Positions 3,148 to 63,955 of a stretch of DNA of 64,000 nt are shown here, one piece after another. A program made the position numbers and the translations under genes. This DNA comes from Butyriboletus loyo (lineage: Eukaryota; Basidiomycota; Agaricomycetes; Boletales; Boletaceae). The stretch is taken from positions 1 through 64,000 of the forward strand of contig JBBPSI010000140.1 in the NCBI GenBank assembly GCA_038093515.1, given 5' to 3'. The first letter of the stretch is position 1; the number at the start of each line of letters is the position of its first letter. The notes below the pieces were generated by a model that was given only the letters and a program-made list of their open reading frames with translations, had not been told where the DNA came from and searched no databases.

Positions 3148-3667
3148 TGTTGCGAGGCAACGCGCAGTCGAATGCTAGCACGTAGTACCCTTTCACAAGC
3201 GGTCCAACGACAGTTGCAGGTCTACACAAAGACCTGGCAAGATGTAATCAAGGAGTCTCAACTTAATCCTCAACTGTTGCCAGCGAATAGACAAGTGGTT
3301 AAAACTAGGGAATCCTAGTCTAACCACGAGCCCTTTTATATTGTACAAGGACGCGCACAGACCATGCTGTGTGTGTGAGGAATTACTATACATGGATAGA
3401 CTAAAGAAGAGAAGCGCAACGGTGATTAACCACACGAGGTGCGGGGATCAAAGAGAAGAGAAGTAAACGGAGATTAAATACATGTGTTGTGACGTCATAG
3501 AGTCTAGGCCTGGTCTAGACCATGACATCATATGCTTAGTCAGCAATGGATCACATGTAAGTTCCCACGATCACGTGTGCTATGTCACGTGACCTTTGAA
3601 GTTGAAATCGACTAAGTCCAAAATGAAAGTGTACGAAGTGTACGAATAAAATGTTATGATTATAACA
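3148..3667 (-). mobile_element. Solo LTR, family LTR1
   Basis: This is a 520-bp element with TG...CA ends (TGTTGCGAGG at the left, TTATAACA at the right). It is nearly the same as the copies at 6719, 26615, 29056 and 32797. The sense strand is minus, because the TATAAAAGG box reads on that strand. Its five-base flanks (CCAAG and GTGGC) do not match, unlike most other copies, so this locus was rearranged after insertion or formed by recombination between LTRs. Confidence 0.85.
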
Positions 3668-6718: not shown

Positions 6719-7228
6719 TGTTGCGAAGGCAACGCACAGTCAAATGCTAGTGCGAATACCGAGCCACAAGTGGTCCACTACAGTTGCAGGTATACACAAG
6801 TACCTGGCAGGTATAAGACTGGAGCTTCAACTTAATCCTCAACTGTTGCCAGCGAATAGACAAGTGGTTAAAACTAGGGAATCCTAGTCTAACCACGAGC
6901 GTTTATATATTATACAGAGATGCGCACAGACCATGCTGTGCATGTGATGAACTACTATACATGGCTAGACTAAAGAAGAGAAGCGCAATGGTGATTAACC
7001 ACATGAGGCGCAGGGATCATAAAGAAGAGAAGTAAACAGAGATTAAATACATGTGTCGTGACATCATAGAGTCTAGGCCTAGGTCTAGGCCATGACATCA
7101 TATGCTTAGTCAGCATGAGATCACATGTAAGTTCCCACGATCATGTGTGCTATGTCACATGACCTTTGAAAGTAAAAACGACTAAGTCCAAAGTGAAAGT
7201 GTACGAAATAAATGTTATGATTATAACA
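6719..7228 (-). mobile_element. Solo LTR, family LTR1, with TSD CAGAT
   Basis: This 510-bp LTR runs from TGTTGCGAAGG to TTATAACA. It is flanked by perfect 5-bp target duplications CAGAT at 6714-6718 and 7229-7233. It inserted into the tail of the XPG-like gene. The sense strand is minus by its TATA box. Confidence 0.93.
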
Positions 7229-7559
7229 CAGATGGAAAAGTTGAGATCATTGGTTGACTGCATCACATCTGTATTGTATTTGTAGTAGCTACACATCTTT
7301 CATATGTATGATGGCATGGCATCAGCTAGAATGTCCCTGTGAAACAAGTTATGAAATTGACCCTACCTTGGTCATGGGGAACTTTCGGAGTGGTCACAGG
7401 CAACTCATCCTATCTCTGCATACCCATTCTCCTTGGTACATGCCCAGAAGTCAGCAAAGAAAGCTCCTCAGCTCCCAGAATCACCACAAAAACATCACAA
7501 ACAGGTGCTATCACCCATCAAGTCTCTGAAGGTGATTGAGAAACTGGCAAGGAGACTCA

Positions 7560-9780: not shown

Positions 9781-11241
9781 GACATCATCCAGCACTGGAT
9801 GGAGGGTGCTCCAGAACTCAGTCTCCACACCCTACTCAGGGACTGGCTTCCCAAATGGACATGGAGTGCCAACTGGCTCTTCACAGCCAAATACCATCAA
9901 TGGTCCATCATTGCGCTCGAGTTCCTCAGCACATGAGTACCACCACCACCCTTCCCTTCACTTGTCTGCTTGTTCCAAACCAGACTCACCCTCCAACTCA
10001 CACAGGTTCCAGTCAAATGAGGCTCGCTTCCTTGCCGCATATCCTGAAGCTGCAAAGGGCCACACCATTCTCATCAATGTGATCAATACTGCACACGAGG
10101 CTCATGGCAAATGAGAGGTGCACTCGTGGAGAGGCTGCAGGGCTTCATCTCATTCTCACCTTGTTCATAAGCCTGAGTAATTTTCTCTCCTCACTTCGAG
10201 TCAAGTCACTCTGGCCGCTTTGTCTGTTGTCAATTTGCTGTCGTTCACACTCACCTCCTCTCTTCGAGTCATCTCCCCTCTTGCATGCTCGAAATATATA
10301 TACTCTACTCTACTGGTGCTCTTTCAACCCCCATCCCTCGAAGGAGAGAGGTGGGGAGTTTTTTCCCTTCAAGTTTGTCAATGGCAGTCTCATCAAGAAC
10401 ATATGATCTGAATTGTTGCACATCTGCATGTGTTGCAGTCATGGTCACGCCCTCTGCTCCTGTCTGTTCGTTCATTTCTGCTCTTATTCCATTCTCGTGT
10501 GTGCATGCATGATCAGTGGCTTCAGTCTCTCGGTGGCAGTGTGGGGGGGTCCTTGCTTGAAACGGAAGGTGTGGGTGGAATCCCAAGTCACATGACACTT
10601 GGTGGCTGTGCCTACTCAGGTGCTGTGGGGCACAGCATGTGTATTTTCCAACATAAGTATTTACCAATATTTGTCTGATGATATCTGTGCATCTCTGATT
10701 GAGGTAACTTTGCCCAAATCTTGACTTGCCTGATTTTCCAATCTGGCAATGCAATGTGCCTTTGTACAATCTACACAACACATTGCAGACTTTACAAAAG
10801 CATGCTGCATGACTTCGTCCTGTCATTCTACTCACCAACCATGGATGTTGAGAGTGCTGGGACATTGAACCAGTGCTACAACTGTGTATGTTCCGCTTAC
10901 AATTTTGGGCAGCCTCATATAGTTTCCTGAACTACCTGGTATCACCATCTTCAAGAAGCTTTGGAGGAAGAGCAACAATGAATGCAGGATGTGAAATTTA
11001 ATGGTCTCATCAGGCCCTCTGATCGTAGGGTATCCTGCAGGCGCAATAATGTTCTACCTATGCAAGTGTGAGCACATGTACATGGTGCCAGTGAGACACA
11101 GGTCTCCCTTGGACAAGGGCCACAATGAGATCTAGAGGTTTGTTTCACTTCTATATCATAAGTTTTTACCTACTAACATATTCCTAGATACTTTCTGCTC
11201 ATTCCTCCTCTCCCAACTCTCCTGTCATGTGGAGAGAATCC
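9781..11241. other. Tail of the recombinase relic and probable 5' part of the transposase relic
   Basis: From 9781 to 10100 a low-complexity plus-strand frame continues (Ser/His/Thr-rich). At 10290-10320 there is a TATA-like AAATATATATACTC run. No conserved motif was recognised from 10115 to 11241. Because a solo LTR with matched TSD splits the DNA at 11241, the sequence just left of it belongs to the same gene or element as the Tnp2 relic. Confidence 0.35.
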
Positions 11242-11738
11242 TGTTATAATTGTACCTCTTATAACTATCTTTTGCATTCGGACTTCGTCATATTTCTCTT
11301 TCAAAGGTCATGTGACCTAGTGCACGTGATTGTGGGATTATACATGTGATCACGAGCTGACTAAGCAAATGATGTCATGGTCCAGACCGGCCCAGACTCT
11401 ATGACGTCATGCCTCATGTATTTAATCTCCGTTTGCTTCTCTTCCTTTTGATCGCCGTCGACTTCTATTTCCCATCATCGTCGACGTGTGACTCACTTCG
11501 TATATACATATGTAGTAACTAGTCACACGCACTGCATGGTCTGTGCGCACTCCCTTGTAATATAAAAGGGCTTGTGGTTGCGGCTAGGATTCCCTAGCTT
11601 TAACCACTTGTCTTATTTGCTGGCAACAGTTGAGAGATTAAGGCCTGAGCTATCCTCATTATACCTCGCCAGTTACTGTGTATAGCTGCAACAGTTGCGG
11701 AACCCTGTGTGACTTGATAACATCATTGTCTCATAACA
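11242..11738 (+). mobile_element. Solo LTR, family LTR1b, with TSD AATCC
   Basis: This 497-bp LTR runs from TGTTATAATTGT to CTCATAACA and is flanked by AATCC (11237-11241 and 11739-11743). The sense strand is plus: GGTCTGTGC at 11538, then TATAAAAGG at 11561. It is the sister of the copies at 32030, 61493 and 61899, and a diverged relative of LTR1. It interrupts the N-terminal part of the transposase relic. Confidence 0.93.
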
Positions 11739-20441: not shown

Positions 20442-20867
20442 TGTTACGCTGGGCGCTAACAACTAGAACAGCGAGGAGGCACTCTGGAGTGGCCTCGAGA
20501 CTCATGAAGCGTTTCTGAGCTGGGTCTCAGACTATGTCTTAGTGCGCACACTAAGAGTCTGGAGTGAAACTAATTGCTAGCAGGTGACTGCGTAGAACTA
20601 GATAGTGTACATGGTGGAAAGGCCGAGCCTTTATACTACTGGGGTCTGCGCACAGACCGTGTCCCTAATCGAGACGCGAGAAGGAAACTACAAATACGGA
20701 AGGAACATTCCAGAAGGTTCCGGAGTGTGAAGGAAAGTGCGTCCGTGCGCGGGAAGTGATGACTAAGTACGAACAGTTGTCACCGTTCAAGTGGAACTAG
20801 CAAAAGGCTAGGTGAATGTAATAGTCCTAACGGTAATGGGGAGAAAAAGTATACCACTACCGTAACA
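20442..20867 (-). repeat. M1 3' LTR
   Basis: The plus-strand text runs TGTTACGCTGGG to CTACCGTAACA. The polypurine tract lies directly inside it (plus-strand TTACCCCCTTCCCATGG at 20868-20884). Confidence 0.95.
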
Positions 20868-20918
20868 TTACCCCCTTCCCATGGTGGAGACTCTGACTCC
20901 ACAATTTGAATGCTCCCT

Positions 20919-22979
20919 TCACTGAGACTCCCCCTTGTTGACATCGTAGTCGTAAGCATCATTGGTATTGAAATCCGCCCAGACGTTGTCCCGAAAGGTG
21001 CAGTTCGTGACGATATGGCCAACGGCACCGCAGAGGCCACATACACGTTCTGGACAAAACTCCTGTATATGACCAGGGGCGATCCGGTGACAGAAGGGGC
21101 AGGTGTAGTTGGGGCACTCCCTACAGAAGTGACCAACGGTCCCACACTTGAAGCAGAGCTGCGGGCGGACGAGGTGAGGTCGAGCAGTGCCTGGGCTGGG
21201 ATCAGGAGATCGGTGTTACAGTTTTACCCCTAAGCGTACCCCGCCACTCGTTTTCCCACGCTTACGCGTCCCCGCCGCCCCCGCCGCCTTGCGATGCCGC
21301 CCATCGCCCGCCCCTTAGTCGCCTAGTGGACGTTATCCACTTCCCCGGTTGCTCCTGCGAGTCTCTGTGCCGTTGCACGAGATAGCCCCTGTCTTCTCGC
21401 CCCGTCGGGCCGGACCTTCAGCTGAGCTGTCGCGTCCCTCTTTTTTTGACCAATGACATTTCTTACATCACGTGACTAGCACGTGACTAGATTACGACGC
21501 GTCAGTACCTTCGCGTCGAGACCCGTATCCAAGGGCTCCGCCGTTCGCGCACCCTTCGCCCTGTGGGGCTCGCCTCATGGACATCGTCACTTCGCCTTCA
21601 GCTCTTCTCATTCGCTGACGATGTCGCCATCTTACTCGGAGCTTCGCTCCCTCGTTACCGGCACTTTGCCGCTTCCCCTTTCGCCGCTATGACTCGGACG
21701 GACTCATAGCCCTATGCCCTTCGCTGCCACGCACAGCTCGGTCTGTGCACGATGGCCCTTAGTATATATACTCGCACTTAGACTAGTACGAGTTCTTTAG
21801 CTAATTCTACGCATCTACCAAGTGCCTAGCAATCTAGCTTATACCCCATCTGCCGATAGAGCCGATAAGCTCAAGCTCGATCTCGTCTGGTCTCCGCCAT
21901 ACGACATCTCGCCGACACTTGCTCTGCAGAAGCCCGATAGCGTCGTCTACGCGAGTCGGCCATCTTCCCGATTAGGCTCGAGCCCCTATTCAAGTGCTCG
22001 CTGCTAGTTGTTTCGCACTCCAGCGTAACAATCGGTCGTCGACGACGATAGGGGAATCACGAGTACCCCGACCGGGGAGATAGGGGGGCGGGGGTCCGTA
22101 CGAAGAGTCATTAGAGCCACCAGCTGCGGCGGCGGGGGAGGTGACACGAGGGATGAGTTGGATGGCGGGGGTGCCACGTCGAGTGGACGGTTGGGGGGTG
22201 ACGGAGCGAAAGGCCCTGTTGGCGATCCTTCTTCCTGCGGCGGTGAGGGTGACTGATCCCGGGACAGATCCAACCTGGAGAAGCGTCTGGCGAGGTTGGC
22301 GACGCACAGTTCGAGGCGGTAGAGGGGAGTGTCGACGAGCGACCTGGGGCTCGTCGACGTCGGTCCGAAAGGACTCAAGTGATTCTCCAGTGGTTTCCCT
22401 GGATGAATCTGCTACCAGTGTGGTCGCAGGTGAATCTCTAGTGGATGGCGCTGGAATAGGTAGTGGCGGAGGAGATCCTTCCGCGGCAGGACGAGGAGGA
22501 GGATTGGGGCCGCGAGCGGTGGGGCGAAGAAATCCAATCCTGTCGTTGGACTGAAAATAAAACTCTCTCTCCCTAGGAGCGAGAGCGACGAGGATGGGGC
22601 GTAGGACGGGGGCGAGGATACCTGGGAGAAGTTGGTCCACGACATACCCGAACCCTTCAGCGTGAAGGATGTCCAGGGTATACCCCCTGGCCTCCATCAA
22701 GGAGGTCTCCAGGGCGGTGGCATATACGGGCGGCTGGTTGTCGGGGCATAGACGGGTGTGGACGGTGCGGGCTAGGGCATATGAACGATAGAGTGAAGCG
22801 AGGGTACGGAGCACGTAGTCTCCAGTAAAATCCATACGTTGCTCGAGGGCATACGTAGCGACGGGGTTTTCTAAAACGGCGGCGTAGAGGACGTGGCGAG
22901 ACGAAACTGGGAGACGAGAAGAGCGAACGGGAGGCTGAGCTGGGAGCGGGGCATTGTTTTCTGCGGGGGGAATGGCCAT
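20919..22979 (-). pseudogene. M1 ORF3: downstream accessory protein with three zinc knuckles, split by a solo LTR3
   Basis: ORF3 starts at the ATG at 22977-22979, ten bases after the pol stop. The N-terminal half (to about residue 145) is conserved between copies: HVLYAAVLENPVATYALEQR, MDFTGDYVLRTLASLYRSYA, and MEARGYTLDILHAEGFGYVV with DQLLPGILAPVLRPILVALA. A Pro/Ser/Arg-rich linker follows. LTR3 (21214-22030) interrupts the frame after the segment DSPIVVDDR. The C-terminal part (21213 to 20919) has CFKCGTVGHFCREC, CPFCHRIAPGHIQEFC (CX2CX6HX4C) and CGLCGAVGHIVTNC. The stop is the TGA at 20919-20921. Three knuckles suggest RNA or DNA binding. I know no named family for the N-terminal half. 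It occupies the position where some LTR elements carry env or an additional ORF, but no signal peptide or membrane segment is visible. Confidence 0.8.
21214..22030 (+). mobile_element. Solo LTR, family LTR3, TSD ATCGG
   Basis: This is an 817-bp LTR from TGTTACAGTTTTACC to CCAGCGTAACA, with duplications ATCGG at 21209-21213 and 22031-22035. GGTCTGTGC is at 21740 and TATATA at 21763. Its end resembles that of LTR2, so the families are related. A second copy, inverted and damaged, is at 33747. Confidence 0.93.
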
Positions 22980-22988
22980 CTTATTTGT

Positions 22989-25900
22989 TTACTGTGAAGA
23001 TGGGGAAGGGAAGTCCTTGGGATGTCGCAGTTTATAAGCCTTGAGAAGGGCTTGCGCATGGACCAAGTTCCCATTCGGCTCCCAGGTGTTCTCAGCTGCG
23101 GAGTACCCTTTCCAGGAAACCAGGAACTGGCGGCGTCCCTTGGAGCCGCGGTGCGATAAGATCCGATCGATCTCATACTCTTCATCTCCGTCTATTTCTT
23201 CCGGAGGGGGATTCGTAAAATTAGGACCGTGCTCCACGGTCTCGCGATAAGGGGTGAGGAGTGACGCGTGGAAGACGTCATGAATCTTCCAGGTCGGGGG
23301 TAATCGGAGTCTGTACGCCACAGGGGAGACAACCTGTGCGATCTCGAACGGTCCTTCCCTTCTTGGGGCGAGTTTCTTGGACGGGTACCTGAGTCGAAGG
23401 TTGCGCCCTTCGAGCCAAACCTTATCCCCTGTCTTCCACGGACGGAACTTGGACGAGATCCGTTCCTTCATCAATCGCCGTGCCTTCTCGTGGGCTTCTA
23501 ATGCCTCCGTTCGGGCTCCCGTGAGTTCCGAGAGTCTGGATTCGAGGGCGGGAAGGAAAGTTTTTCCGATTGGAGGATAAGACCTCGGCTCGTAACCGAC
23601 CATCAGGGAGAAGGGGGTCACGTTGGTCGATGAATGGGTCATGGAATTGTGGGAAAACTCGGCCATGGGGAGAAGTTCGGCCCATCGTTCCGGGTGACCA
23701 TCACAGAAGATCCGGAGGTACGTTTCCAGTTCTTGATTGACTCGTTCTGTTTCTCCGTCGGTCTGTGGGTGGTATGCGGAGGAGAGGGCGAGGTCATAGT
23801 CCAGGAGCCTTGCGAGTTCTCTGGCGAAGGCAGAAGCGAACTGAGGACCACGGTCAGAGATGCAGTGGGAGTGTAGTCCGAAGTGGAGGAAGATGGTTTT
23901 GAAGAATAATTTGGCGACTCCTGCCGCATCGATGTCCTTGTTGCAAGGGGAATAAATTACCCCCTTCGTAAGCCCATGGTCTACCACGACCATGACAGAA
24001 TCATAACCTAAAGAGGAAGGAAGGCCAGTAATGAGGTCAACTGAGACCTGTTCAAAAGGGCGAGAGGCCACGCTGGCCAGAGGGGTGAGAGGAGGCATGG
24101 TGGGGTGAGTATTAACTTTATGCGCCTGACAAACGGCACAGCCAGAGACGAAATGGTGGACCAGATTAGCCATGCCTGGCCACCAATAATCCCGTTGCAC
24201 CAGGTTCTGGGTGCGAAATATGCCACCGTGACCTCCAGCCGGGCTTTCGTGCAGAGATCGGATGAGGTCGACTCGTGCCGCCTCCGGGATGTAGCGTTTC
24301 TTGCGAAAATACAGCTCTTTACCGTCGAAGTCCCAGTCCCCAGCATTCATTTTGGGAAAGAGCGGGGAGTCTTCATAAAGAGCCTGCATGCATCGCTTAA
24401 TCATGGGATCGCTGGGGGTGGAGGCTGCAATCTTTTCGGCGAGGGCGACGTCAATCTTGCGAGCGAAGAGATTCTCTGGGAGGAGGGTTATCTCCTGGTT
24501 GTCGGCAGAGGTGTCAACATCGTCGTGGCGGGATAAAGCATCGGCAGGTCCCATCTGAGTACCTGGGATGTGATGGAAATGCAGGTCGAAATCCTGCAGG
24601 AACATGAGCCAACGTGCTTGTCGGTGAGACAACTTGTTTGGTTGTCGAAAGTATGTGAGATTTTTATGGTCAGTGAGAATCTCGACCTGGTGACCAGTAC
24701 CGCGCAGGTAATGTCGCCATTCTTCTAATGCGTGAATGACTGTGAGCAGTTCGTGGTCGTAGATATCGTAATTGCGCTCTGCAGGGGAGAGTGTCTTCGA
24801 GAGGTATGCGCAGGGGTGGAGGTCCCCATTGACGTCCTTTTGCATGCCCCGGTGGCAGTAAGGGAGGCATCTGTCATGACTGCAAATGGCTTCGTGACAT
24901 CGGGCATGGAAAGGATGGGCTGCCTTAAGAACGACTGTTTTATTGCCTGGAACGCGGCCTCACAGGCGGGGGTCCAGGCCCAGGGGGAGTTTTTCTTCGT
25001 CAGGTCATGCAGCAGCTTTGCAATATGGGAGAAGTCCTGGATAAATCTCCGATAGAAATTGCAAAAACCTATGAAGGACCTAACAGCCTTCACAGAAGTC
25101 AGGGGGTTCCATTCATGAATGGCTTTCAGTTTGGTAGGGTCCATCTTGACCTGCCCCTCTCGGACCATCATTCCGAGGTACTCTACCTCTTCAGCATTGA
25201 ATAAGCATTTCTCCAGCTTGAGAAATAGCCTGTGTTCACGAAGGTGTTCAAGGACCCAAATCGTTCGCGCTTCATGCTCGGCTGCAGTGGCGGAATGGAT
25301 CAAAAGGTCGTCCATGTAGATAATCAGCCAGCCTTCTGCCATAAGGTCACCGAAGATGTGGTCCATCAAAGCCTGGAACGTAGCTGGAGAGTTGCAGAGT
25401 CCGAAAAACATCACAGTGGGTTCAAACAACCCTTGGGGAGTGATGAAGGCTGCCTTCCGGCGGTCATTCAGCTTCATGAGGACATTGTTGTACCCCCATC
25501 GGATATCCATCTTGGTGAAAATCTTTGAGCCTTTGAGGTGATCTACGAGGTCTGAGATGAGGGGGAGAGGGTAGGCGTTTTTGACTGTATGGGAGTTCAG
25601 GTACCGATAGTCCTGACAGGGGCGTAGCGAGCCATCTTTCTTCGATACGAAGAAGAAAGGGGCGGCTTGGGGGGACTTGGAGGGAGTGATTTTTCCCGAC
25701 TTGAGGTGTTCCTCGACGAACGCCTTACATGCCTCTGACTCCTTCGGGTTCAGAGGATAGACCTTGGCGACTTTGGGTATGAAGTCTTTATCGAGGTCGA
25801 TGGCGTGGTCGAAGGACCTGGACGGGGGTAACTCCTCGGTGTTCTTCTTGTCAAAAACGTCCGCGAAGGACTTGAACGGGGTTGGGAGAACTGCCTTCTC

Positions 25901-26542
25901 CTTGGTGATCTGGGCGGCGATCTCGGTCGCGATGGTTGCTTTTCGAACAGGGTAAGCTTCCCTTGCTGAAGCGTCTACTCGCTTCTTCCAGAGCTTGGCG
26001 ATTTTGGAGTCTGGGTCCAAGTCAAGGTACCATACCAGGTACCGTTGAGCGATTGCCCGAGGGGAGTCGTGTCGGGGCTTCTTGATTTGATCTGGGAGAT
26101 CGATATGGCCAGTGGCCCAATCTATTACCAGGTTGGCTTCTCGCAACCATGGTAATCCCAGGATCATGTTTTCTCTTCCTATATTGAGGACCAGGAAACT
26201 CCGTTCCTCCTCGGTTTCTCCAATCCTGATGGAGATGGTGACTTTGTGTCGTATGACTCCTCCTTGGTTGTTTGACCCGTCCACGTTTTGGGCACTAAGT
26301 GGCTTGGGTAGCCGTTCCATTGGCAGTTTCTTTCGCTTCACTAGATCTCGGTCTATGAAGCATCCGCTTGCGCCGCTGTCCACCAGGGCGAATGTGTCGA
26401 CAATTTGTCCCCCTTCATGCGCGAATAATGACACTGGGACTCAAATAGATTGCGCATTTGGGTTTGATAAAACTACAGGGGCAATTACATGGAGAGGCGA
26501 AGATGTCGAAACTTCCCTCTCTTCTAAAAATCCTTTGGCCAT
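22989..26542 (-). pseudogene. M1 pol: protease, RT, RNase H, integrase, chromodomain; one stop and one 7-nt deletion
   Basis: The start ATG is at 26540-26542, inside the gag end. An early TGA (26441-26443) stands where P1 has CGA. Protease VDSGASGCFIDRD (near 26390-26350) and RT with YMDD (near 25330-25310) follow. In RNase H, after [10 protein letters not shown], seven bases present in P1 are missing (near 24848), shifting the frame. The second frame (24845 to 22989, 618 codons) holds the rest of RNase H and an integrase zinc finger (LHESPAGGHGG with CAVCQAHK). The integrase core has D-D-E residues (the D of VSVDLITGL, SDRGPQF, QTDGETERVNQELE). A C-terminal chromodomain reads EEYEIDRILSHRGSKGRRQF with WKGYSAAENTWEP. 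The chromodomain marks a chromovirus, which targets integration through histone marks. The element is inactive as it stands, but only two lesions break pol. Confidence 0.92.
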
Positions 26543-28225
26543 TCTTCGGCCACCTTGGTTGCTGCGACGGGCAGCTTTTCTTCATCTTCGTTGAAGCACG
26601 CCTTGAGGACATTCTGTTACGAGACAACGATGTTATCAAGTCACATGAAGTTCCACTACTGTTGCAGTACTACACAGGTACTGGCAAGGTATAATGAGGA
26701 TAGCTCAAATCTTAATCTCTCAACTGTTGCCAGCGAATAAGACAAGTGGTTAAAGCTAGGGAATCCTAGCCGCAACCACGAGCCCTTTTATATTGTACAA
26801 GGATGCGCACAGACCATGCTGTGCGTGTGAGGAATTACTATACATGGATAGACTAAAGAAGAGAAGCGCAACGGTGATTAACCACACGAGGCGCGGGGAT
26901 CAAAAAGAAGAGAAGTAAACGGAGATTAAATACATGTGTCGTGACGTCATAGAGTCTAGGCCTGGTCTAGGCCATGACATCATATGCTTAGTCAGCAATG
27001 GATCACATGTAAGTTCCCACGATCACGTGCGCTATGTCACGTGATCTTTTGAAAGTGAAAACGACTAAGTCCGAATTGAAAGTGTACGAATAAAATGTTA
27101 TGATTATAACACATTCAAGACGTCTTCTTGCTGAGTGCCTTGACCTTTCAACTCGGACAAGTAGTCGACGAGTGGGGAGGGCTTTGGTTCGGGGGGTGAG
27201 ACGATAGCGGCGCGCGCACGCTGAGGGTTACGAGGGGGACGAGGGGGCGGTCCTCGGGAGTTCTGCCCGTTGCGAGGGGGGCGAGGATGGTTAGTCGATC
27301 GGCAGCCGACTTGGTGGCAAATGAAGCATTTGTTCTGCTTCATGTACTCCGCACGTTGTACGGGAGTAAGTCGGACTGCGTCGATGTCCATCGCGTTGGG
27401 GTCCCTTCTGCTGGACGAGGGCTTGGAGGGAGAGGAGAAAGTGGGAATGTAGCGCTTCCCTGCGCGGAGGTCGTCGATGCGCTTGTGTTGCGCGTGGAAT
27501 GCGGATGTCTTTTCGGCCCATCCGGCGAGCGTGGTAGGAGGTTTCTCGCAAGAGAGAACAGACTCTGCGAGGCGGGGGTCAAGACCGCGGATAAACCATT
27601 CTATGAGGGCCTTCTCGTCGATGATTCCTGACTTCGCGGCGAGGAGTTGGAACTCGGTGACATAGGTATCATAGCCGTCCTTTCGGTTGGCTTTGTTCTG
27701 GGTGAGGTTCCCCAGATCAATCCGAGCGCTCTCTCCTACGTCGAAGGGGTGGAAGACCCTGTGGAAGTCTTCACAGACTGTTGAGAACTCCCTTTGTCGC
27801 GCTGTGGGGTGTCCGTCCAGGAGGAGACTCATCCATCCTTCGGAAAATGTCTTGCCTTTCCCTTCACTCATTTTCATGAGGAGGGCATTAATTTTTGACT
27901 CGTCGTCGGGGAATGCTGTCTGGTTAGCGGCGAAGTAGGTGCGCATGGCGAGGAGCCATCGCGAAGCGTCTTCATTGAGACCAGAGAAGTCCTTGGGGAC
28001 GATATTCTTTTTGTCAGACATATCGTTGTTGTCGTCTTCGTCGTCGGAGGGATCTGCGGGTGGATAATACGGCGGGGAGGGAGAGCGGGAAACGTGGGGA
28101 GAGACGTGGGGGGTTCTGTCAAGCCAGTCGCTGTTATAACCATCGTCGCTGGGTGCCGGTTCGTCTTCCTGCCCTAGACCCTGGTCCTCGGGTTGATAAG
28201 AGGGTTCGGGGTCCGACTGGGGCAA
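26524..28225 (-). pseudogene. M1 gag, interrupted by a solo LTR1
   Basis: The gag frame reads from an upstream Pro-rich open segment; the first in-frame ATG is at 28019-28021 (MSDKKNIVPKDFSGLNED). The core NALLMKMSEGKGKTFSEGW and ALIEWFIRGLDPRLAESVL is intact. The nucleocapsid-like end has NKCFICHQVGCRSTNHP, a Cys-Cys-Cys-His knuckle, and an Arg/Pro/Gly-rich basic tail. LTR1 (26615-27111) splits it near its C-terminus, after QQEDVLN. The remainder runs to TAG at 26524-26526. The part from 28021 to 27117 has no stop. The Pro-rich upstream segment differs from P1 by a two-base indel near 28365, so it is probably leader. Confidence 0.85.
26615..27111 (-). mobile_element. Solo LTR1 in M1 gag, TSD CATTC
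   Basis: This is a 497-bp LTR with perfect duplications CATTC at 26610-26614 and 27112-27116. It carries a CRE palindrome TGACGTCA at 26942-26949 and two CACGTG boxes at 27024 and 27038. The sense strand is minus. Confidence 0.95.
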
Positions 28226-28424
28226 AGGGGAAAACTGGGGTTGAGGGTCTGGCGGGGCGGGAGAGTGTGGTGGCGATGGGTTGTCGACGACGATGGGTTC
28301 CGGTTCGGGAGAGGGAACGCGGAAAGAACGACCGACGCGTCTGGGACGTTGGATGGAAATGTTGGGCGAGGGGAGGGTGGCTTTACTGCTGGGAAGCAGA
28401 AGCGAGAGGAAGATCTAGTTCTTT

Positions 28425-28850
28425 TGTTACACTGGGCGCTAACAACTAGAACAGCGAGGAGGCACTCTGGAGTGGCCTCGAGACTCGTGAAGCGTTTCTG
28501 AGCTGGGTCTCAGACTATGTCTTAGTGCGCACACTAAGAGTCTGGAGTGAAACTAATTGCTAGCAGGTGACTGCGTAGAACTAGATAGTGTACATGGTGG
28601 AAAGGCCGAGCCTTTATACTACTGGGGTCTGTGCACAGACCGTGTTCCTAATCGAGACGCGAGAAGGAAACTACAAATACGGAAGGAACATTCCAGAAGG
28701 TTCCGGAGTGTGAAGGAAAGTGCGTCCGTGCACGGGAAGTGATGACTAAGTACGAACAGTTGTCACCGTTCAAGTGGAACTAGCAAAAGGCTAGGTGAAT
28801 GTAATAGTCCTAATGGTAATGGGGAGAAAAAGTATACCACTACCGTAACA
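28425..28850 (-). repeat. M1 5' LTR
   Basis: The plus-strand text runs TGTTACACTGGG to CTACCGTAACA. The self-priming site AGAACTAGAT lies on the minus strand just inside (plus-strand ATCTAGTTCT at 28413-28422). It pairs with plus-strand AGAACTAGAT at about 28575-28584, the proposed RNA start. Confidence 0.95.
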
Positions 28851-31092
28851 TGGTACTGGCCACCAGGTGGAGATTCTCACCGATCACAAGAATCTCACTT
28901 ACTTCCATCAACCAAATAAACTATCTCGCCAGCAAGCACGCTGGCTAATGTTTCTGCAGGATTTTGACCTGCACTTCCACCACGTTCCGGGCATGCAAAT
29001 GGGACCTGCGGATGCTCTGTCCTGAAGGGATGACGTCGACACCTCTGCCCACAACTGTTGCGCAAGCAACGTGCAGTCGAATGCTAGCATGAATACCTTT
29101 GCCACAAGCGGTCCTATACAACAGTTGCTGCGCTACACAAAGCACAGGCAGGTGATAAGACTGGAGCTTCAACTTAATCCTCAACTGTTGCCAGCGAATA
29201 GACAAGTGGTTAAAACTAGGGAATCCTAGTCTAACCACAAGCCTTTATATATTGTACAGGGATGCGCACAGACCATGCTGTGCGTGTGATGAACTACTAT
29301 ACATGGCTAGACTAAAGAAGAGAAGCGCAACAGTGATTAACCACACGAGGCGCGGGGATCAAAAAGAAGAGAAGTAAATGGAGATTAAATACATGTGTCG
29401 TGATGTCATAGAGTCTAGGCCTGGTCTAGGCCATGACATCATATGCTTAGTCAGCAGGAGATCACATGTAAGTTCTCACGATCACGTGCGCTATGTCACG
29501 TGACCTTTGAAAGTGAAGTTGAAGCAAAACGACTAAGTCCAAAATGAAAGTGTACGAATAAATGTTATGATTATAACAACAACCAGGAGGTCACCCTTCT
29601 CCCAGAAAACCTATTCACCAGGAAAATCAACCTTGCTCTCGCCGAGAAGATTGCCGCCTCAACTCCCAGCGACCCTATGATCAAGCAATGCATGCAGGCT
29701 CTTTATGAAGACTCCCCCCTCTTCCCTAAAATGAATGCCGGAGACTGGGACTTCGACAGTAAAGAGCTGTATTTCCGCAAAAAGCAGTACATCCCCGAAG
29801 CCGTGCGTGTCGACCTCATCTGATCCCTACACGAAAGCCCCACTGGGGGTCACAGCGGCATATTCTGCACCCAGAACCTGGTGCAACGTGATTATTGGTG
29901 GCCAGGCATGGCTAATCTTGTCTGCTGTTTTGTCTCTGGCTGCACTGTTTGCCAGGCACATAAGGTTAACACTCACCCCACCATTCCCCCCCTCACTCCC
30001 CTGGCCAGTGTGGCCTCTCGTCCTTTCAAACAGGTCTCCGTTGACCTTATCACCAGTCTTCCCTCCTCTTTGGGTTATGATTCCGTCATGGTCGTGGTAG
30101 ACCATGGGCTTACGAAGGGGGTAATTTATTCCCCTTGCACTAAAGACATCGACGCAGCAGGAGTCGCGAAACTATTTTTCAAAACTGTCTTCCTTCGGTT
30201 CAGTCTTCACTCCCTCTGCATCTCTGATCGAGGTCCTCAATTCACCTCCGCCTTTGCCAGAGAGCTCGCAAGGCTCCTTGACTATGATCTCGCTCTCTCC
30301 TCCACGTACCACCCTCAGACTGATGGCGAAACAGAACAAGTCAACCAAGAACTGGAGATGTATCTTCGAATCTTCTGTGATGGTCACCCTGAATGATGGG
30401 CTGAGTTACTCCCTATGGCCAAGTTTTCCCATAACTCCATGACTCATTCGTCAACCAACGTGACTCTCTTCTCCTTGATGGTCAGCTATGAGCTGAGGTC
30501 TTATCCTCCAATCGGCAAGACATTCCTCCCTGCCCTCGAGTCCAGACTCTTGGAACTCACAGGAGCCCAAATGGAAGCTCTGGAGGCCTATGAGAAGGCA
30601 TGATGTCTGATGAAGGAGCAGATCTCCTCCAAGTTCTGGCCATGGAAGACAGGTGACAAGGTTTGGCTTGAAGGGCGCAACCTTCAACTCAGGTACCTGT
30701 CGAAGAAGCTCACACCAAGAAGGGAAGGACCGTTCGAGATCGCACAGGTGATCTCCCCTGTGGCATATAGGCTCCAACTACCACCGACCTGGAAGATCCA
30801 TGATGTCTTCCACGCATCACTGCTGACTCCTTATCATGAAACTATGGAGCATGGTCCAAATTTCACAAACCCTCCCCCAGAAGAAATAGTCGGAGATGAA
30901 GAGTACGAGATTGATCGGATCTTGTCCCATTGCGGATCAAAGGGACGCTGCCAATTCCTTGTATCCTGGAAAGGATATTCTGCAGCAGAGAACACCTGGG
31001 AGCCAAACAGGAACTTGGTCCATGTGCAAGCCTTGCTCAGGGCTTATAAGCTGTGCCACCCCAAGGATTTTCCCTCCCCATCTTTGCAGTAA
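28851..31092 (+). pseudogene. P1 pol, second half: RNase H end, integrase, chromodomain
   Basis: It resumes the P1 pol frame with GHQVEILTDHKNLTYFHQPN and LMFLQDFDLHFHHVPGMQMG, and is interrupted by LTR1 (29056-29578) between TSAHN and QEVTLLPENL. The integrase finger (HESPTGGHSG, CTVCQAHK), core (SDRGPQFTS, QTDGETEQVNQELE) and chromodomain (EEYEIDRILSHCGSKGRCQF, WKGYSAAENTWEP) are all recognisable. TGA stops occur at 29023, 29821, 30394 and 30601; those at 29821 and 30394 replace CGA of M1 exactly. Several Arg codons have become Cys or Gln, as expected from CpG decay. The stop is the TAA at 31090-31092. Confidence 0.9.
29056..29578 (-). mobile_element. Solo LTR1 in P1 pol, TSD ACAAC
   Basis: This is a 523-bp LTR with perfect duplications ACAAC at 29051-29055 and 29579-29583. 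The sense strand is minus. It is the closest relative of the copies at 3148, 6719 and 32797. Confidence 0.95.
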
Positions 31093-32029
31093 AACTTGAA
31101 AATGGCCATTCCTCCCGCTGAAAACAATGCCTCTGAGGACAACCTTCCTCTCCCACCTCAACCTCCTGTCCGTTCCTCTCACCTTCCAGTGTCATCCCAC
31201 CATGTTCTCTACACCGCCGTCTTAGAAAACCCTGTCACCACCTATGCCCTGGAGCAGCGTATGGACTTCACTGGGGACTATGTCCTCCGCACCCTCGCTT
31301 CTCTCTACTGCTCCTATGCCCTTGCCCATACTGTCCATACCCATCTTTGCCCTGACAACCAGCCACCCGTCTATGCCGCTGCCCTCAAGTCTTCTCTGAT
31401 GGAAGCTCGAGGGTACACGTTGGACATCCTCCACGCCAAAGGGTTTGGTTATATCGTGGACCAACTCTTGCCAGGTATTCTGGCCCCTGTCCTCAGACCC
31501 ATCCTCATTGCGCTTGCTCCTAGGGAGCAGCAATTCTATCTTCATTCCACCGACTGCATCGGCTATCTCCGCCCCATGGCTCGCAGCCCCAATCCAGTGC
31601 CTCATCCTCTCCTGGCAAGATCTCCTTTGCCTATACCTGTTCCAGCGCCATCCACTCAAGAGTCGCCTGCAACCACACTGGTAGCAGACTTGTCACGAGA
31701 GACCACTGGGGAGTCTTTAGAGTCCTTTCAGACCGACGTCGATGAGCCCCAGGTCGCTCATCAACACTCCCCCCTACCGCCTCGTATGGTGTGCCGCCAA
31801 CCTCACCAGGTGTTACTCCAGGTTGGAGCCATCCCCAGGTCAGTCACCCTTACCGCTGCTGGATGAAGAATTGCCAACAGAGCCATCCGCTCCGTCACCC
31901 CCCAACCATCCACTCGACAAGGAACTCCCACCATCCAGCTCATCCCTTGTGTCGCCTCCCCCCTCGCCGCAGCTGGCAGTTCTAACGACTCTTCATACGG
32001 ACCCCCACCTCCCTACTTCGCCAGTTGGG

Positions 32030-32526
32030 TGTTGTAATCGTATATCTTATAACTATCTTTTGCATTTGGACTTCGTCATATTTCTCTTTCAAAGATCACG
32101 TGACTTGGCGCACGTGATCGTGGGATTATACATGTGACCACAGGCTGACTAAGCATATGACGTCATGGTCCAGACTGGCCCAGACTCTATGACATCACGC
32201 CTCATGTATTTAATCTCTGTTTGCTTCTCTTCTTTTTGATCACCGTCGACTTCTATTTCTCATCATCGTCGACCCGTGACTCACTTCGTATATACTTGTA
32301 TAGTAACTAGTCTCACGCACTGCTTGGTCTGTGCGCATTCCCTTGTAATATAAAAGGGCTTGTGGTTGCGGCTAGGATTCCCTAGCTTTAACCACTTGTC
32401 TTATTCACTGGCAACAGTTGAGAGATTAAGGCCTGAGCTATCCTCATTACACTTTGCCAGTTATTGTGTATAGCTGCAACAGTTGCGGAACCCCGTGTGA
32501 CTTGATAACATCATTGTCTCGTAACA
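32030..32526 (+). mobile_element. Solo LTR1b in P1 ORF3
   Basis: This is a 497-bp LTR running from TGTTGTAATCG to CTCGTAACA. Its flanks TTGGG (32025-32029) and TCGGG (32527-32531) are a target duplication differing by one C-to-T change at a CpG. The sense strand is plus. Confidence 0.9.
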
Positions 32527-32796
32527 TCGGGGCACTCGTGATTCCCCTATCATCCTGGACGACAGATCCCCAGCTACCAGCCCACGCCCTACTTGACCTC
32601 GCCTCATCCGCCTGCAGCTCTGCTTCGAGTGCAGGACCGTCGGCCACTTCTGCAGAGAATGCCCAAACTACACTTGTCCATTCTGCCACCAGGTTGCCCT
32701 TGGTCATATACAGGAGTTTTGTCCAGAGCGCGTCTGCAGTCTATGTGGTGCCATTGGCCACATCGTCACCAACTGCACCCTCTGGGACGACATATG

Positions 32797-33315
32797 TGTT
32801 ATAATCATAACATTTATTCGTACACTTTCATTTTGGACTTAGTTGTTTCACTTCAACTTTCACTTTCAAAGGTCACATGACATAGCGCACGTGATCGTGG
32901 GAACTTACATGTGATCTCATGCTGACTAAGCATATGATGTCATGGCCTAGACCAGGCCTAGACTCTATGATGTCACGACACATGTATTTAATCTCCATTT
33001 ACTTCTCTTCGTTTTGATCCCCGCGCCTCGTGTGGTTAATCACCGTTGCGCTTCTCTTCTTTAGTCTAGCCATGTATAGTAGTTCATCACACGCACAGCA
33101 TGGTCTGTGCGCATCTCTGTATAATATATAAAGGCTTGTGGTTAGACTAGGATTCCCTAGTTTTAACCACTTGTCTATTCGCTGGCAACAGTTGAGGATT
33201 AAGTTGAAGCTCCAGTCTTATACCTGCCAGGTACTTGTGTATACCTGCAACTGTAGTGGACCGCTTGTGGCTCGGTATTCACGCTAGCATTCGACTGTGC
33301 ATTGCCTTCACAACA
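32797..33315 (+). mobile_element. Solo LTR1 in P1 ORF3
   Basis: This is a 519-bp LTR running from TGTTATAATCAT to TTCACAACA. Its flanks ATATG (32792-32796) and GTATG (33316-33320) are a duplication that differs by one G-to-A change at a former CpG. GGTCTGTGC is at 33102 and TATATAAAGG at 33125. The sense strand is plus. Confidence 0.9.
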
Positions 33316-33432
33316 GTATGGGCGGACTTCTCTGTCGACGATGCTTACAACAACGACTTCAACAAGGGAGCGTCTCAATGAGGGGAGTTTTCAGGTTGTG
33401 GAGTCAGAGTCTCCACCATGGGAAGGGGGTAA

Positions 33433-53648: not shown

Positions 53649-55474
53649 ATGTCCTCTGATCTGCAGTCTGCTTTGGAGCTTCTCCAGACGTCTAATTATA
53701 TATCCAGTGCGCTCTCTCATACCTTCCATCAATGATTAATCTTATAGACCAGCGCAGCTGCTCTCCACACTGCTGTTGTGTACGATTATTGTGAGTGATG
53801 CTGACAGTGCACACGCTATCCTTTTCGCGCTGAAGTGACCATTGCAATCCCACCACTGCAGTCCTCACCCTTTCGAGAGAGGTATGTTCTTTCACTCTGC
53901 ATCCTATCTGTGGGCTGACAATATTCAAAGGTAGACTATGTATGGGTAAGGAACCAACAATTATTGAGCGAGCTAGGTCCCTGACAGTCTTACAGCTCAC
54001 ACCCTGGTCCCGGGTCTCTACAATCTTTGTTCTGGTGCGTGTAAACGTCCAGGGAACCTCATTGTACATTCTAAATTCACGGTTCTGTAGGTTCGTTATT
54101 TCGGGCTTTGTTCCACAATGTGCGTCGATTGTTGCTATAATGCATACAAAATTATATAGCTAACGGTTGATCCGTGATCAAGTCTTTATGCGTTCTGTAT
54201 GTTCAGAATTATATTGGAGGTCGATTGAGCTGATCAGATATGTTTGCAGTTGGTACTACCTTTCTCCCTGGCCCCGTCAGAGTCAGTCTTTCTGCTTCGC
54301 GCCTTGTCTATCGTTGATGATGATCTTCTGTCTAGACGTATGCATCTAAATTGCAATTGAAACCTGTATTGATAACAGTTGCATAGATGTAAGCAGATTC
54401 ATTTATTGCCTGTGACACTATCAGTGTGAGACATGGATATTCCAAAGGCACCATACTATTGATGGTATCCATCTGGGCGTTTCAGATATTTTATAATGCT
54501 GCTGACTGTAAGTTGCTGTACCCCCTAGTTCCTGACCTCTGACTATGGTTTCAATCACAGTGGTTATGATCCTGCGAGTGTATGCAATGTGGAATCGATC
54601 CAAAAGAATTCTTTGGGTTCTCCTGTTCATCTACGTGATACAGGTTGCTTCTTCCATCATTTTAATAGGCATATACAGAAATCCCAGTACCTACGTCTCC
54701 GGTATGCCTCGAGCCAAACTGCATGCATTCCTCTATCTCACGAATGTGACCCTTCATCACCTTGCACTCTTTTCTCCAGTCACAGTTGTTCAACTTATGA
54801 ATTTCTCGTATTGCAATACCTCCCTCGCTCCACCCACGGCTCTCACGTATTTCACAATCCCACGATTCATTCTCAGTGCTATTCTTTTGGTTCTTGCTGT
54901 TATCCAAACCTGCAAGCAGTCGGTCGAGATGTACAAAGAAACCAAACAGTGGCAGCCTAATCGGTATATGCATCACCTCGTTAGAGATGGAGTTGTATAT
55001 TTCTTTGTGTGCGTCTCGCTTTTCTACTCTCTCTTGTTCGTCACGATTACATTCCCCCATACATCCTACTCTCGAGTGCTTTCCCAACAACTAACCACTC
55101 AGTTATTTTTTTTAATTGCTAGAAATATGCTGTACGGGGTAATCAATATAGTCCAGGCCGAGTCCTCACACTACGGCACTTCGCTGCTCGTCTTGTGGTT
55201 GCTGTCTTTGGTAACCATATGCCCTATGATGCCGCGGTTCATCATCAGCGTGCGAGAGCTGCACGACCGTGACCTTCGTAGGAGCTGGGAGGGGATTGAC
55301 AGCAGATTCGGTGTGTTGTCGCAACACATTGCCAGTGAAGATGCCGCCGTGTCTGCGATTACATTCGCAGTTGTCACCCCGGGACAGGATCAGGTCGTAG
55401 AAGGAGACGCGAACGGATCGGAGGCGATTCGACTCGAGCCGTTGGGCGACGTTGACAATACGCGTCAGGTTTGA
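53649..55474 (+). CDS. DUF6533-like multi-pass membrane protein, copy E (best preserved)
   Basis: Likely exons are 53649-53706 (MSSDLQSALELLQTSNYIS), 53758-53790 (VVYDY), 53862-53881 (FLTLSRE), 53931-53945 (VDYVW), 53996-54034 (PWSRVSTIFVL) and 54091-54119 (VRYFGLCST). Then come an exon from 54250 whose 3' border I could not fix, 54397-54507 (SIWAFQIFYNAAD) and a last exon 54561-55474. The phases agree except at the exon 7/8 junction. The last exon (304 codons) is uninterrupted: LVMILRVYAMWNRSK, then hydrophobic helices around ILWVLLFIYVIQVASSIILI, FILSAILLVLAVIQ, VVYFFVCVSLFYSLLFVTIT and SLLVLWLLSLVTICPMM. A charged cytoplasmic tail ends DVDNTRQV. The pattern is of a seven-helix membrane protein of the basidiomycete DUF6533 type, function unknown. 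Confidence 0.68.
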
Positions 55475-62696: not shown

Positions 62697-63955
62697 TCAT
62701 TGAGATGCTCCCTCGTTGAAGTCATTGTTGTAAGTGTTGTCGCCATCGAAGTCCGCCCAGGTGTCGTCCCGGAATGTGCAATTGGCAACGATGTGGCCAA
62801 TGGCCCCGCATAAGCCGCAGACACGCTCTGGACAAAACTCCTGTATATGACCAGGGGCGATCTGGTGGCAGAATGGGCAGGTGTAGTTGGGACATTCCCT
62901 GCGGAAGTGGCCGACGGTCCCGCACTCAAAGCAGAGCTGCGGGCGGACGAGGCGAGGTCGAGCAGGGCCTGGGCTGGGACCAGGGGATCTGTCGTCCATG
63001 ACGATAGGGGAATCACGAGTGCCCCGACCAGGGAGGTAGGGAGGCGGGGGTCCGTACGAAGAGTCGTTAGAACCGCCAGCTGCGGCGGCGGGGGAGGTGA
63101 CATGAGGGATGAGCTGGATGGCGGGGGTTCCTCGTCGAGTGGATGGTTGGGGGGTGACGGAGCGGACGGCTCGGTTGGCAATTCTTCTTCCTGCAGCGGT
63201 GAGGGTGACTGACCCAGGGATGGCTCCGACCTGGAGTAGCGCCTGGCGAGGTTGGCGACGCACTGTACGAGGTGGTAGGGGGGAGTGTCGACGAGCGACC
63301 TGGGGCTCGTTGACGTCGGTCCGAAAGGACTCCAGGGACTCCCCGGTGGTCTCACGCGACGAGTCTGCTACCAATGTGGTTGCAGGAGACTCTTGGGCGG
63401 GTGGTGCTGGAACAGGTACAGGCGAAGGAGATCTTGCCAGGGGAGGACGAGGCACTGGATTGGGGCCACGAGCCATGGGGTGGAGGTAGCCGATGCGGTC
63501 GGCAGAGTGGAGGTAGAATTGCCGCTCCCTAGGAGCAAGCGCGATGAGGATGGGACTGAGGACAGGGGCCAGAATACCTGGCAGGAGTTGGTCCACCACA
63601 TAACCGAATCCTTCTGCATGAAGGATGTCCAGGGTGTATCCTCGAGCTTCCATCAAGGAGGACTCGAGGGCAGCGGCGTACACGGGGGGTTGGTTGTCTG
63701 GACAAAGGCAGGTGTGGACGGTGCGGGTGAGGGCGTAGGAGCGGTAGAGGGAAGCGAGAGTACAGAGGACATAGTCCCCGGTGAAGTCCATACACTGTTC
63801 CAAAGCATAGGTGGTGACAAGATTTTCTAGAACAGCAGCGTAGAGGACGTGGCGGGAGGATACTGGGAGGCGAGAGGAACGGACGGGAGGTTGAGGCGGA
63901 AGAGGGAGGCATTATTTTCTGCGGAAGAGGCATTTTCTGCGGGAGGAATGGCCAT
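62697..63955 (-). CDS. M2 ORF3: accessory protein with three zinc knuckles
   Basis: The original start is the ATG at 63953-63955 (MAIPPAENASSAENN), but a one- or two-base indel near 63910 shifts the frame in the first 20 codons. From the ATG at 63801-63803 a 368-codon frame is intact to the TGA at 62697-62699. It has MDFTGDYVLCTLASLYRSYA, the GYTLDILHAEGFGYVVDQLL block, a long Pro/Ser/Arg-rich linker and three knuckles: CFECGTVGHFRREC (residues 291-304 from that ATG), CPFCHQIAPGHIQEFC (309-324) and CGLCGAIGHIVANC (329-342). The end is Asp/Asn-rich. It is the most complete ORF3 in the window. Nucleic-acid binding is inferred from the knuckles; the N-terminal domain is unknown. Confidence 0.82.

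What the first reader, a model, noticed from the sequence alone, without database searches (positions are those of the whole stretch)
20919..22979. A third ORF with three zinc knuckles between pol and the 3' LTR of a fungal chromovirus family
Seen: three copies (M1 20919-22979, P1 31102-33381, M2 62697-63955) have an ORF on the element's sense strand starting 8-10 bases after the pol stop. The N-terminal half is conserved and matches no domain I know. The C-terminus has CX2CX4HX4C, CX2CX6HX4C and CX2CX4HX4C, all cysteines and histidines kept in all three copies. Known: standard chromoviruses have only gag and pol; additional ORFs at this place are described mainly from plant LTR elements. Inference: this is a retained accessory protein, possibly a separate nucleocapsid-like RNA-binding factor or a silencing suppressor.
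Basis: partly seen in the sequence, partly recalled or inferred. Interest (0 to 1): 0.75.

Follow-up and report, generated by a model that had tools for sequence, protein, structure and literature searches.

The report
Conserved third gene in fungal retrotransposon
A jumping element present in many copies in this genome carries, besides its two standard genes, a third gene for a nearly lysine-free protein with three zinc knuckles; natural selection maintains it, relatives exist outside this genome, and its job is unknown but probably involves binding RNA.

Summary
ORF3 is real and selected, but no window copy is an unbroken ORF: M1 carries an ~817-bp LTR-like insert, P1 a stop and two repeat inserts, M2 a frameshift. 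Elsewhere in the genome 91 of 111 scored matches have no stop in the aligned stretch, and 91 of 111 lie directly behind the same pol. Across 31 distinct copies pooled dN/dS is 0.105 (N-domain 0.041, knuckles 0.050), with dN below dS in all 465 pairs. Nine JGI proteins are relatives; one (36% identity) keeps the exact three-knuckle array, another joins the same chromodomain tail to ORF3. The ATG lies 8-11 nt after the pol stop in all three relative frames (22 copies), favouring stop-restart translation over readthrough. Thirty of 33 copies have no lysine. The N-domain matches nothing known. Best mechanism: a separately translated, nucleocapsid-like RNA-binding protein supplementing a Gag whose own knuckle is CCCH-like. 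The gene is close to certain; its function is inferred. Additional ORFs are known in LTR elements, so this is a new variant of a known kind.

The parts
20442..28851 (-). M1, the element carrying the ORF3 of the finding (LTR to LTR)
   Evidence: 427-bp LTR pair 98.6% identical; flanking letters printed give TACCA on both sides
28425..28851 (-). M1 5' LTR
27104..28225 (-). M1 gag; its knuckle-like motif reads CFICHQVGCRSTNH (CX2CX4CX4H)
   Evidence: Retrotrans_gag E 1e-6, no zf-CCHC match; sequence
22989..26434 (-). M1 pol (PR-RT-RH-IN-chromodomain), frame broken where the two ORFs 24725-26434 and 22989-24845 overlap
   Evidence: Pfam matches; ORFs
22980..22988 (-). 9-nt spacer between pol stop and ORF3 ATG (8-11 nt in 22 other copies)
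22031..22979 (-). M1 ORF3, part upstream of the insertion (N-terminal tail, N-domain, proline/arginine-rich linker); no lysine
22500..22889 (-). ORF3 N-domain in M1 (approximate); all-helical in a low-confidence model
   Evidence: dN/dS 0.041 over the corresponding residues in 31 distinct copies; model mean pLDDT 59.5
21212..22030 (-). insertion inside M1 ORF3: TGTTAC...GTAACA, about 817 bp, CCGAT duplication, high-copy repeat, looks like a solo LTR of another family
   Evidence: besides itself 39 near-full-length places at 94-98% among the 40 candidates scored (of 500)
20919..21211 (-). M1 ORF3, part downstream of the insertion, ending TGA about 50 nt before the 3' LTR; two lysines
21000..21155 (-). 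M1 three zinc knuckles (52 residues)
   Evidence: translation
20442..20867 (-). M1 3' LTR (starts TGTTACGG, preceded by a purine-rich GGGAAGGGGG tract)
31102..33381 (+). P1 ORF3, broken: stop at codon 255 and insertions 32020-32526 and 32793-33318
32621..32776 (+). P1 three zinc knuckles
   Evidence: translation
62697..63955 (-). M2 ORF3, frameshifted near its start; knuckle-bearing frame open for 404 codons
62778..62933 (-). M2 three zinc knuckles
   Evidence: translation; zf-CCHC E 1.1e-7 on the M2 ORF

Best explanation
ORF3 is a genuine third gene of a Ty3/gypsy chromovirus family, between the chromodomain end of pol and the polypurine tract. Shown: it lies inside the LTRs, is under strong purifying selection, keeps a fixed architecture (conserved N-domain, P/R-rich linker with SLESFRT and LTAAG motifs, three-knuckle array), and has relatives outside this genome, one of them directly behind a homologous chromodomain tail. 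Inferred: it is translated from the pol mRNA by termination-reinitiation across an 8-11 nt gap. The protein binds RNA through its knuckles and multimerises through the N-domain (helical only by a weak model), acting as a separate nucleocapsid-like packaging or chaperone factor alongside a Gag with only a CCCH-type knuckle. Lysine depletion would keep it stable against ubiquitin tagging. Likelihoods (my estimates): selected gene 0.97; stop-restart translation 0.6; nucleocapsid-like role 0.45; lysine avoidance selected for stability 0.3.
For: Selection: pooled dN/dS 0.105 in 31 distinct copies, jackknife 0.103-0.106, 0 of 465 pairs with dN >= dS; N-domain 0.041, knuckles 0.050, linker 0.227. The two other frames of ORF3 give 1.8 and 3.9 in 18 copies, where ORF3 gives 0.09 and the pol control 0.018. 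Knuckles: 12 ligands kept in 33 of 33. Linkage: 91 of 111 ORF3 matches have the pol tail 143-180 bp upstream of the aligned start on the same strand; pol and ORF3 distances correlate in 18 copies, r 0.56, 1 of 2000 permutations. A complete copy, L039, has LTR-gag-pol-ORF3-LTR. Relatives: P0001-P0009; P0002 36% over 410 alignment columns with the same three knuckles; P0008 71% over 97 residues to the chromodomain tail, with ORF3 following directly. Stop-restart: spacers 8, 9, 10, 11 nt in 1, 8, 7, 6 of 22 copies, so only 8 of 22 are in frame with pol. Gag: one motif CFVCHQVGCRSTNH in L039, no zf-CCHC Pfam match, while the Gag-like ORFs of another LTR family in this genome have a canonical knuckle (L002-L008). 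Lysine: 30 of 33 copies have none; gag has 22 and pol 78.
Against: No transcript, protein or binding data. The N-domain model is weak (mean pLDDT 59.5; whole P0002 45.7) and finds no fold. ORF3's linker and knuckle-plus-tail part are only moderately charged (net +9 and -6), unlike the strongly basic nucleocapsids I recall. A conserved pyrimidine tract plus CAG just before the pol stop (26 of 27 copies) could be a splice acceptor, which would replace reinitiation. RNA folding around the junction is not unusual (z -1.37). Base composition alone predicts only 4.5 lysines, so their absence is not extreme for one copy; M1 has two lysines, one in knuckle 1 and one in the tail, and two of the ten added copies share the knuckle-1 lysine. 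Copies were picked as intact, which biases dN/dS downward somewhat; the youngest pairs (dS < 0.02) number only 2, ratio 0.22. The link of ORF3 with a CCCH Gag rests on two Gag sequences (M1, L039).
Confidence: 0.5

Rival explanations
1. Host antagonist: ORF3 binds element or host RNA to shield it from surveillance or small-RNA silencing (an AIR1/2-like decoy of the TRAMP/exosome system, or a silencing suppressor) rather than packaging it.
For: Best solved-structure match of the knuckle module is AIR2 (E 3.1e-7), collinear over three knuckles with a lengthened middle one. Lysine deserts (ORF3) are frequent in proteins of the ubiquitin-proteasome system (PMC10169902, abstract read). The gene is separate from Gag.
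Against: The AIR2 likeness is mostly generic knuckle grammar: with C, H, G and P held fixed, 77 of 1000 shuffles reach the score (20 of 1000 for P0002); with only C and H fixed, 0 of 1000 do for either. No Pfam match to the N-terminal half, so no known suppressor domain.
Confidence: 0.22
2. ORF3 is expressed from a spliced or internally initiated mRNA, not by stop-restart on the pol mRNA.
For: Pyrimidine-rich tract ending in CAG directly before the pol stop in 26 of 27 copies. Fourfold-site diversity halves over the last 66 codons of pol, 0.145 (29 sites) vs 0.311 (142 sites), p 6e-4 on non-independent sites.
Against: Donor-like GTRNGY motifs between the start of the 5' LTR and the end of gag in L039 are only three, two of them in the LTR. 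A spliced intron of several kb would be unusual for fungi (recalled). L015 lacks the CAG. One 20-codon block elsewhere in pol is as low in diversity (0.090).
Confidence: 0.3
3. ORF3 is a duplicated or detached piece of Gag.
For: Zinc knuckles and a helix-predicted domain, as in Gag.
Against: No similarity to the Gag of the same element (best BLASTP E 2.6); no Pfam gag match; CCHC versus CCCH knuckle pattern.
Confidence: 0.06
4. Env-like glycoprotein, as in some extra ORFs of plant and animal elements.
For: Position after pol; one hydrophobic stretch in L039 (Kyte-Doolittle mean 1.82 over 19 residues).
Against: That stretch contains an arginine and three prolines, and at the aligned place P0001, P0002 and P0003 reach only 1.14, 1.06 and 0.99; their maxima elsewhere are 1.58, 1.52 and 1.61. 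The C-terminus is three RNA-binding-type knuckles.
Confidence: 0.02
5. Chance or hitchhiking ORF without function.
For: All three window copies are broken.
Against: dN/dS 0.105 with alternative frames above 1; a relative at 36% identity with all ligands kept.
Confidence: 0.01

Closest known systems
Chromoviruses (chromodomain Ty3/gypsy LTR retrotransposons) of fungi, e.g. the clades surveyed in PMC2864245
   Same: LTRs, gag, PR-RT-RH-IN order, C-terminal chromodomain
   Different: Third gene of about 420 codons between chromodomain and PPT. The survey says that the majority of its full-length elements have one or two ORFs; its Figure 3 legend names an additional ORF of unknown function, without sequence or domain in the text that I read. 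I did not place this element in one of its clades.
LTR elements with ORF3 in bdelloid rotifers (PMC5408684, abstract only)
   Same: A third ORF besides gag and pol, not always env
   Different: The abstract names env-like, GDSL esterase/lipase and DEDDy exonuclease types and no knuckle protein
Retroviral and Ty3-type nucleocapsid
   Same: CCHC zinc knuckles; weak matches to NC chains in PDB
   Different: Nucleocapsid is the C-terminal part of Gag (recalled); here three knuckles sit in a separate protein with a conserved N-domain
AIR1/AIR2 zinc-knuckle proteins of the TRAMP complex (complex name recalled)
   Same: Three collinear knuckles with short linkers and a lengthened middle one
   Different: Similarity not clearly beyond knuckle grammar; nothing of the N-terminal half matched
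Stop-restart translation of fungal victoriviruses (recalled; review PMC5972666 seen in a search listing only)
   Same: Downstream gene starts within a few bases of the upstream stop, independent of frame
   Different: Here an 8-11 nt gap after an open pol frame of 1201 codons in L039, no overlap of stop and start

Membership tests
Chromovirus (Ty3/gypsy) | LTR pair with target-site duplication | tested here: met
   M1 LTRs 98.6% identical; TACCA on both sides read from the flanks printed. L039 LTRs 98.8% identical but its flanks show no matching duplication
Chromovirus (Ty3/gypsy) | PR-RT-RNaseH-integrase order and C-terminal chromodomain | tested here: met
   L039 pol: RVP_2 67-164, RVT_1 315-474, RT_RNaseH 563-669, Integrase_H2C2 769-827, Chromo 1140-1188
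LTR element with an additional ORF | selected extra ORF inside the LTRs | tested here: met
CCHC zinc-knuckle protein | zf-CCHC above curated cut-off | tested here: met
   32.6 bits vs 20.8 for L039 ORF3
Nucleocapsid | part of Gag | tested here: not met
   separate ORF, no similarity to Gag
Nucleocapsid | binds and chaperones element RNA in particles | not testable with these tools
   needs biochemistry
AIR1/AIR2 | homology beyond knuckle spacing | tested here: inconclusive
   77 of 1000 shuffles with C, H, G, P fixed reach the score for L039, 20 of 1000 for P0002
Env-like ORF | transmembrane segment conserved in relatives | tested here: not met
   hydropathy 1.82 in L039 but 1.14, 1.06, 0.99 at the aligned place in P0001-P0003
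Silencing suppressor | suppresses small-RNA silencing | not testable with these tools
Stop-restart (coupled termination-reinitiation) | close stop and start with frame not conserved | tested here: met
   8-11 nt, all three relative frames, 22 copies
Stop-restart (coupled termination-reinitiation) | upstream RNA element promoting reinitiation | tested here: inconclusive
   reduced synonymous diversity but ordinary folding energy

The most novel reading that the evidence does not exclude
A new class of retroelement gene: an RNA-binding accessory protein, kept nearly lysine-free so that it escapes ubiquitin-dependent turnover, made by frame-independent stop-restart behind pol. It takes over or supplements the nucleocapsid role that Gag has partly lost, and is shared by at least two divergent chromovirus lineages.
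Probability: 0.25. Interest if true: 0.8.

Novelty: new variant of a known kind. Interest (0 to 1): 0.6.

Why it matters
LTR retrotransposons are usually described as gag plus pol. A third gene held at dN/dS about 0.1 in a high-copy element, with a relative at 36% identity and another in the same place behind pol, means these elements need something that gag and pol do not supply. If it is a detached nucleocapsid, the element separates RNA binding from capsid assembly and becomes a natural test of how the two functions can be uncoupled. The lysine depletion gives a sharp, cheap test of whether mobile elements adapt to the ubiquitin system. The frame-independent junction offers a compact stop-restart site to study in fungi.

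Tried and rejected
Chance ORF: rejected by dN/dS and relatives. Readthrough or frameshift from pol as the general mode: rejected, 14 of 22 junctions are out of frame. P0008 does join chromodomain and ORF3 in one reading frame; it also shows a deletion and other changes against its relatives, so I read it as a decaying copy whose pol stop is lost, without having its DNA. Env: rejected. Gag duplication: no similarity. A second gene in the +1 frame of ORF3 (about 273 codons open, running past the ORF3 stop, in the copies whose listing I could see): dN/dS 1.83 for that frame over the whole ORF3, so not supported. AIR capture: left as a lead, not beyond knuckle grammar; a query from the AIR2 match gave a list of 150 scored places that, where I compared coordinates, were ORF3 copies; I recognised no host AIR gene in it. 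A second, P0002-like ORF3 family in this genome: none stood out; the best match to P0002 was 42% and the listed places were copies of the same family as far as compared (capped list). Structure: both models low confidence; Foldseek in PDB and in viral predictions gave nothing at E <= 0.001. The many hepatitis B core entries at TM 0.2-0.3 are not evidence. IMG/VR scans with ORF3 and with pol found no relative. The first protein search with the M1 N-half found nothing, perhaps because word candidates were swamped; the full-length and profile searches worked. No pol control was run in the protein database. Literature: eight topical searches (open-access papers only) listed no description of this ORF3; two more were on stop-restart and lysine deserts. 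The supplement of PMC2864245, which might hold its additional ORF, was out of reach.

Full report
What is in the window. The window is contig C140 of a 30.3-Mb assembly of 420 contigs. M1 is an 8.4-kb LTR element on the minus strand, 20442-28851, with 427-bp LTRs 98.6% identical; the flanks printed show TACCA on both sides. It encodes a Gag (Retrotrans_gag) and a Pol with protease, RT, RNase H, integrase and a chromodomain. ORF3 begins 9 nt after the pol stop and ends about 50 nt before the 3' LTR. P1 and M2 carry the same gene 9 and 8 nt after pol. None of the three is an unbroken frame, however. M1 is split by a repeat of about 817 bp with TG...CA ends and a CCGAT duplication; besides itself 39 near-full-length places at 94-98% were found among 40 scored candidates of 500. 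P1 has a stop and two inserted repeats. M2 is frameshifted near its start.

The gene in the genome. A search with the M2 protein scored 111 places (of 396 candidates); 91 have no stop inside the aligned stretch, 20 do. L039 (C109) shows the whole order with open frames: LTR, gag, pol frame of 1201 codons, ORF3 of 423 codons, LTR, with LTRs 98.8% identical.

Selection. On 27 copies (25 distinct) pooled dN/dS is 0.101. With ten more divergent copies and four without canonical start left out, 33 copies (31 distinct) give 0.105: N-terminal tail 0.051, N-domain 0.041, linker 0.227, knuckles 0.050, C-tail 0.196; jackknife 0.103-0.106; 0 of 465 pairs have dN >= dS. In 18 copies ORF3 gives 0.089 where the end of pol gives 0.018, and reading ORF3 in its two other frames (stops skipped) gives 1.8 and 3.9. 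ORF3 is therefore less constrained than pol but plainly protein-coding. All 12 zinc ligands are kept in 33 of 33.

Beyond this genome. One JGI protein was found with the single sequence and nine with a profile; both searches scored only the candidates sharing most words. P0002 (350 aa) aligns over almost the whole length at 36% identity and keeps the three knuckles with the same unusual middle spacing. Most of the others are shorter pieces; P0001 and P0003 keep the N-domain, SLESF(R/W)T and LTAAG motifs, P0001 keeps knuckle 1, and P0003 has lost a ligand there, as a decaying copy would. P0008 runs from a chromodomain tail 71% identical to ours straight into the ORF3 N-terminus, so in this one case the junction is conserved too. 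P0001-P0009 carry no organism names.

The protein. No Pfam family matches the N-terminal half. PDB sequence matches lie in the knuckle part, residues 333-408 (module alone). AlphaFold gives seven helices in the N-domain at low confidence (mean pLDDT 59.5; P0002 45.7 overall, same helix layout), and Foldseek finds nothing at E <= 0.001. The knuckle module resembles AIR2 best, but shuffles that keep C, H, G and P reach the score 77 times in 1000. Gag of this family has one CX2CX4CX4H motif in the two copies read (M1, L039) and no zf-CCHC match, whereas Gag-like ORFs of another LTR family in the genome (L002-L008, assigned by my reading) have a canonical knuckle.

Lysine depletion. ORF3 of L039 has 0 lysines and 45 arginines; gag and pol of the same element have 22 and 78 lysines, about twice what their base composition predicts, whereas ORF3's composition predicts 4.5. 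From the ATG on, 30 of 33 copies have none, 2 have one and 1 has two. P0002, P0003, P0004, P0006 and P0009 (whose C-terminal half does not align) have none; P0001, P0005 and P0007 have one each; P0008 has six, five of them in its pol part by my reading. Among single-base variants, lysine was created once where 7.9 were expected from the acceptance of other changes of the same type; counting multi-base changes there are three distinct lysine positions. M1 has none before its insertion and two after it, in knuckle 1 and the tail; P1 has several where the other copies have glutamate. I read this as real depletion, part composition and part selection. Avoidance of unwanted ubiquitylation is the explanation offered for lysine deserts in PMC10169902 (abstract read).

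Expression. The spacer between pol stop and ORF3 ATG is 8, 9, 10 or 11 nt in 1, 8, 7 and 6 of 22 copies (a few of these are near-identical duplicates). Spacing is conserved while frame is not, which fits termination-reinitiation and speaks against readthrough or frameshifting as the general mode. Fourfold-site diversity falls from 0.311 to 0.145 over the last 66 codons of pol (p 6e-4, sites not independent; one 20-codon block elsewhere is as low), folding there is ordinary, and a pyrimidine tract plus CAG precedes the stop in 26 of 27 copies. A cis element for restart or a splice acceptor would both fit.

Mechanism. Shown: a selected gene, inside the LTRs, with an RNA-binding-type knuckle array and a conserved new N-domain. 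Inferred: it is translated by restart, presumably at a lower level than pol, multimerises through the helix-predicted domain, and binds element RNA as a separate nucleocapsid-like factor. A host-antagonist role is the main rival.

Novelty. Extra ORFs in LTR elements are known (PMC5408684, abstract), and a survey of fungal elements has a figure symbol for one of unknown function (PMC2864245, section 5). In PMC3248453 a term search found no occurrence of zinc, CCHC or knuckle in the main text. Eight topical open-access searches listed no such protein. I therefore call it a new variant of a known kind: a new protein family in a known position.

Noticed in passing
M1 ORF3, 22979-20919, and other ORF3 copies: ORF3 protein is nearly lysine-free while gag and pol of the same element are lysine-rich.
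   Followed up: partly
last ~66 codons of pol, e.g. L039:6703-6903: Synonymous (fourfold) diversity halves towards the pol stop, and a pyrimidine tract ending in CAG precedes the stop in 26 of 27 copies: possible cis element or splice acceptor.
   Followed up: partly
window 21212-22030 (-): About 817-bp TG...CA repeat with CCGAT duplication inserted in M1 ORF3; 39 other near-full-length places at 94-98% among 40 scored candidates; probably a solo LTR of another family.
   Followed up: partly
window 32020-32526, 32793-33318, 26615-27110, 6719-7234, 3148-3667, 11241-11738, 29044-29579, 61495-62378: Two related ~500-bp repeat families that repeatedly sit inside or next to this chromovirus, also directly after the 3' LTR of L039.
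   Followed up: no
ORF3 copies with stops: 27 of 29 premature stops listed in 20 of 111 rows are TGA, as expected if arginine CGA codons decay by C-to-T change.
   Followed up: no
window 36953-58372: Several diverged copies (about 81-84%) of a ~1.9-kb unit; two open frames (54545-55474, 57403-58329) match no Pfam family.
   Followed up: no
ORF3 +1 frame, e.g. L016:1937-2758: A second frame stays open for about 273 codons past the ORF3 stop in many copies listed; dN/dS above 1 over ORF3, so probably only stop-poor sequence.
   Followed up: partly
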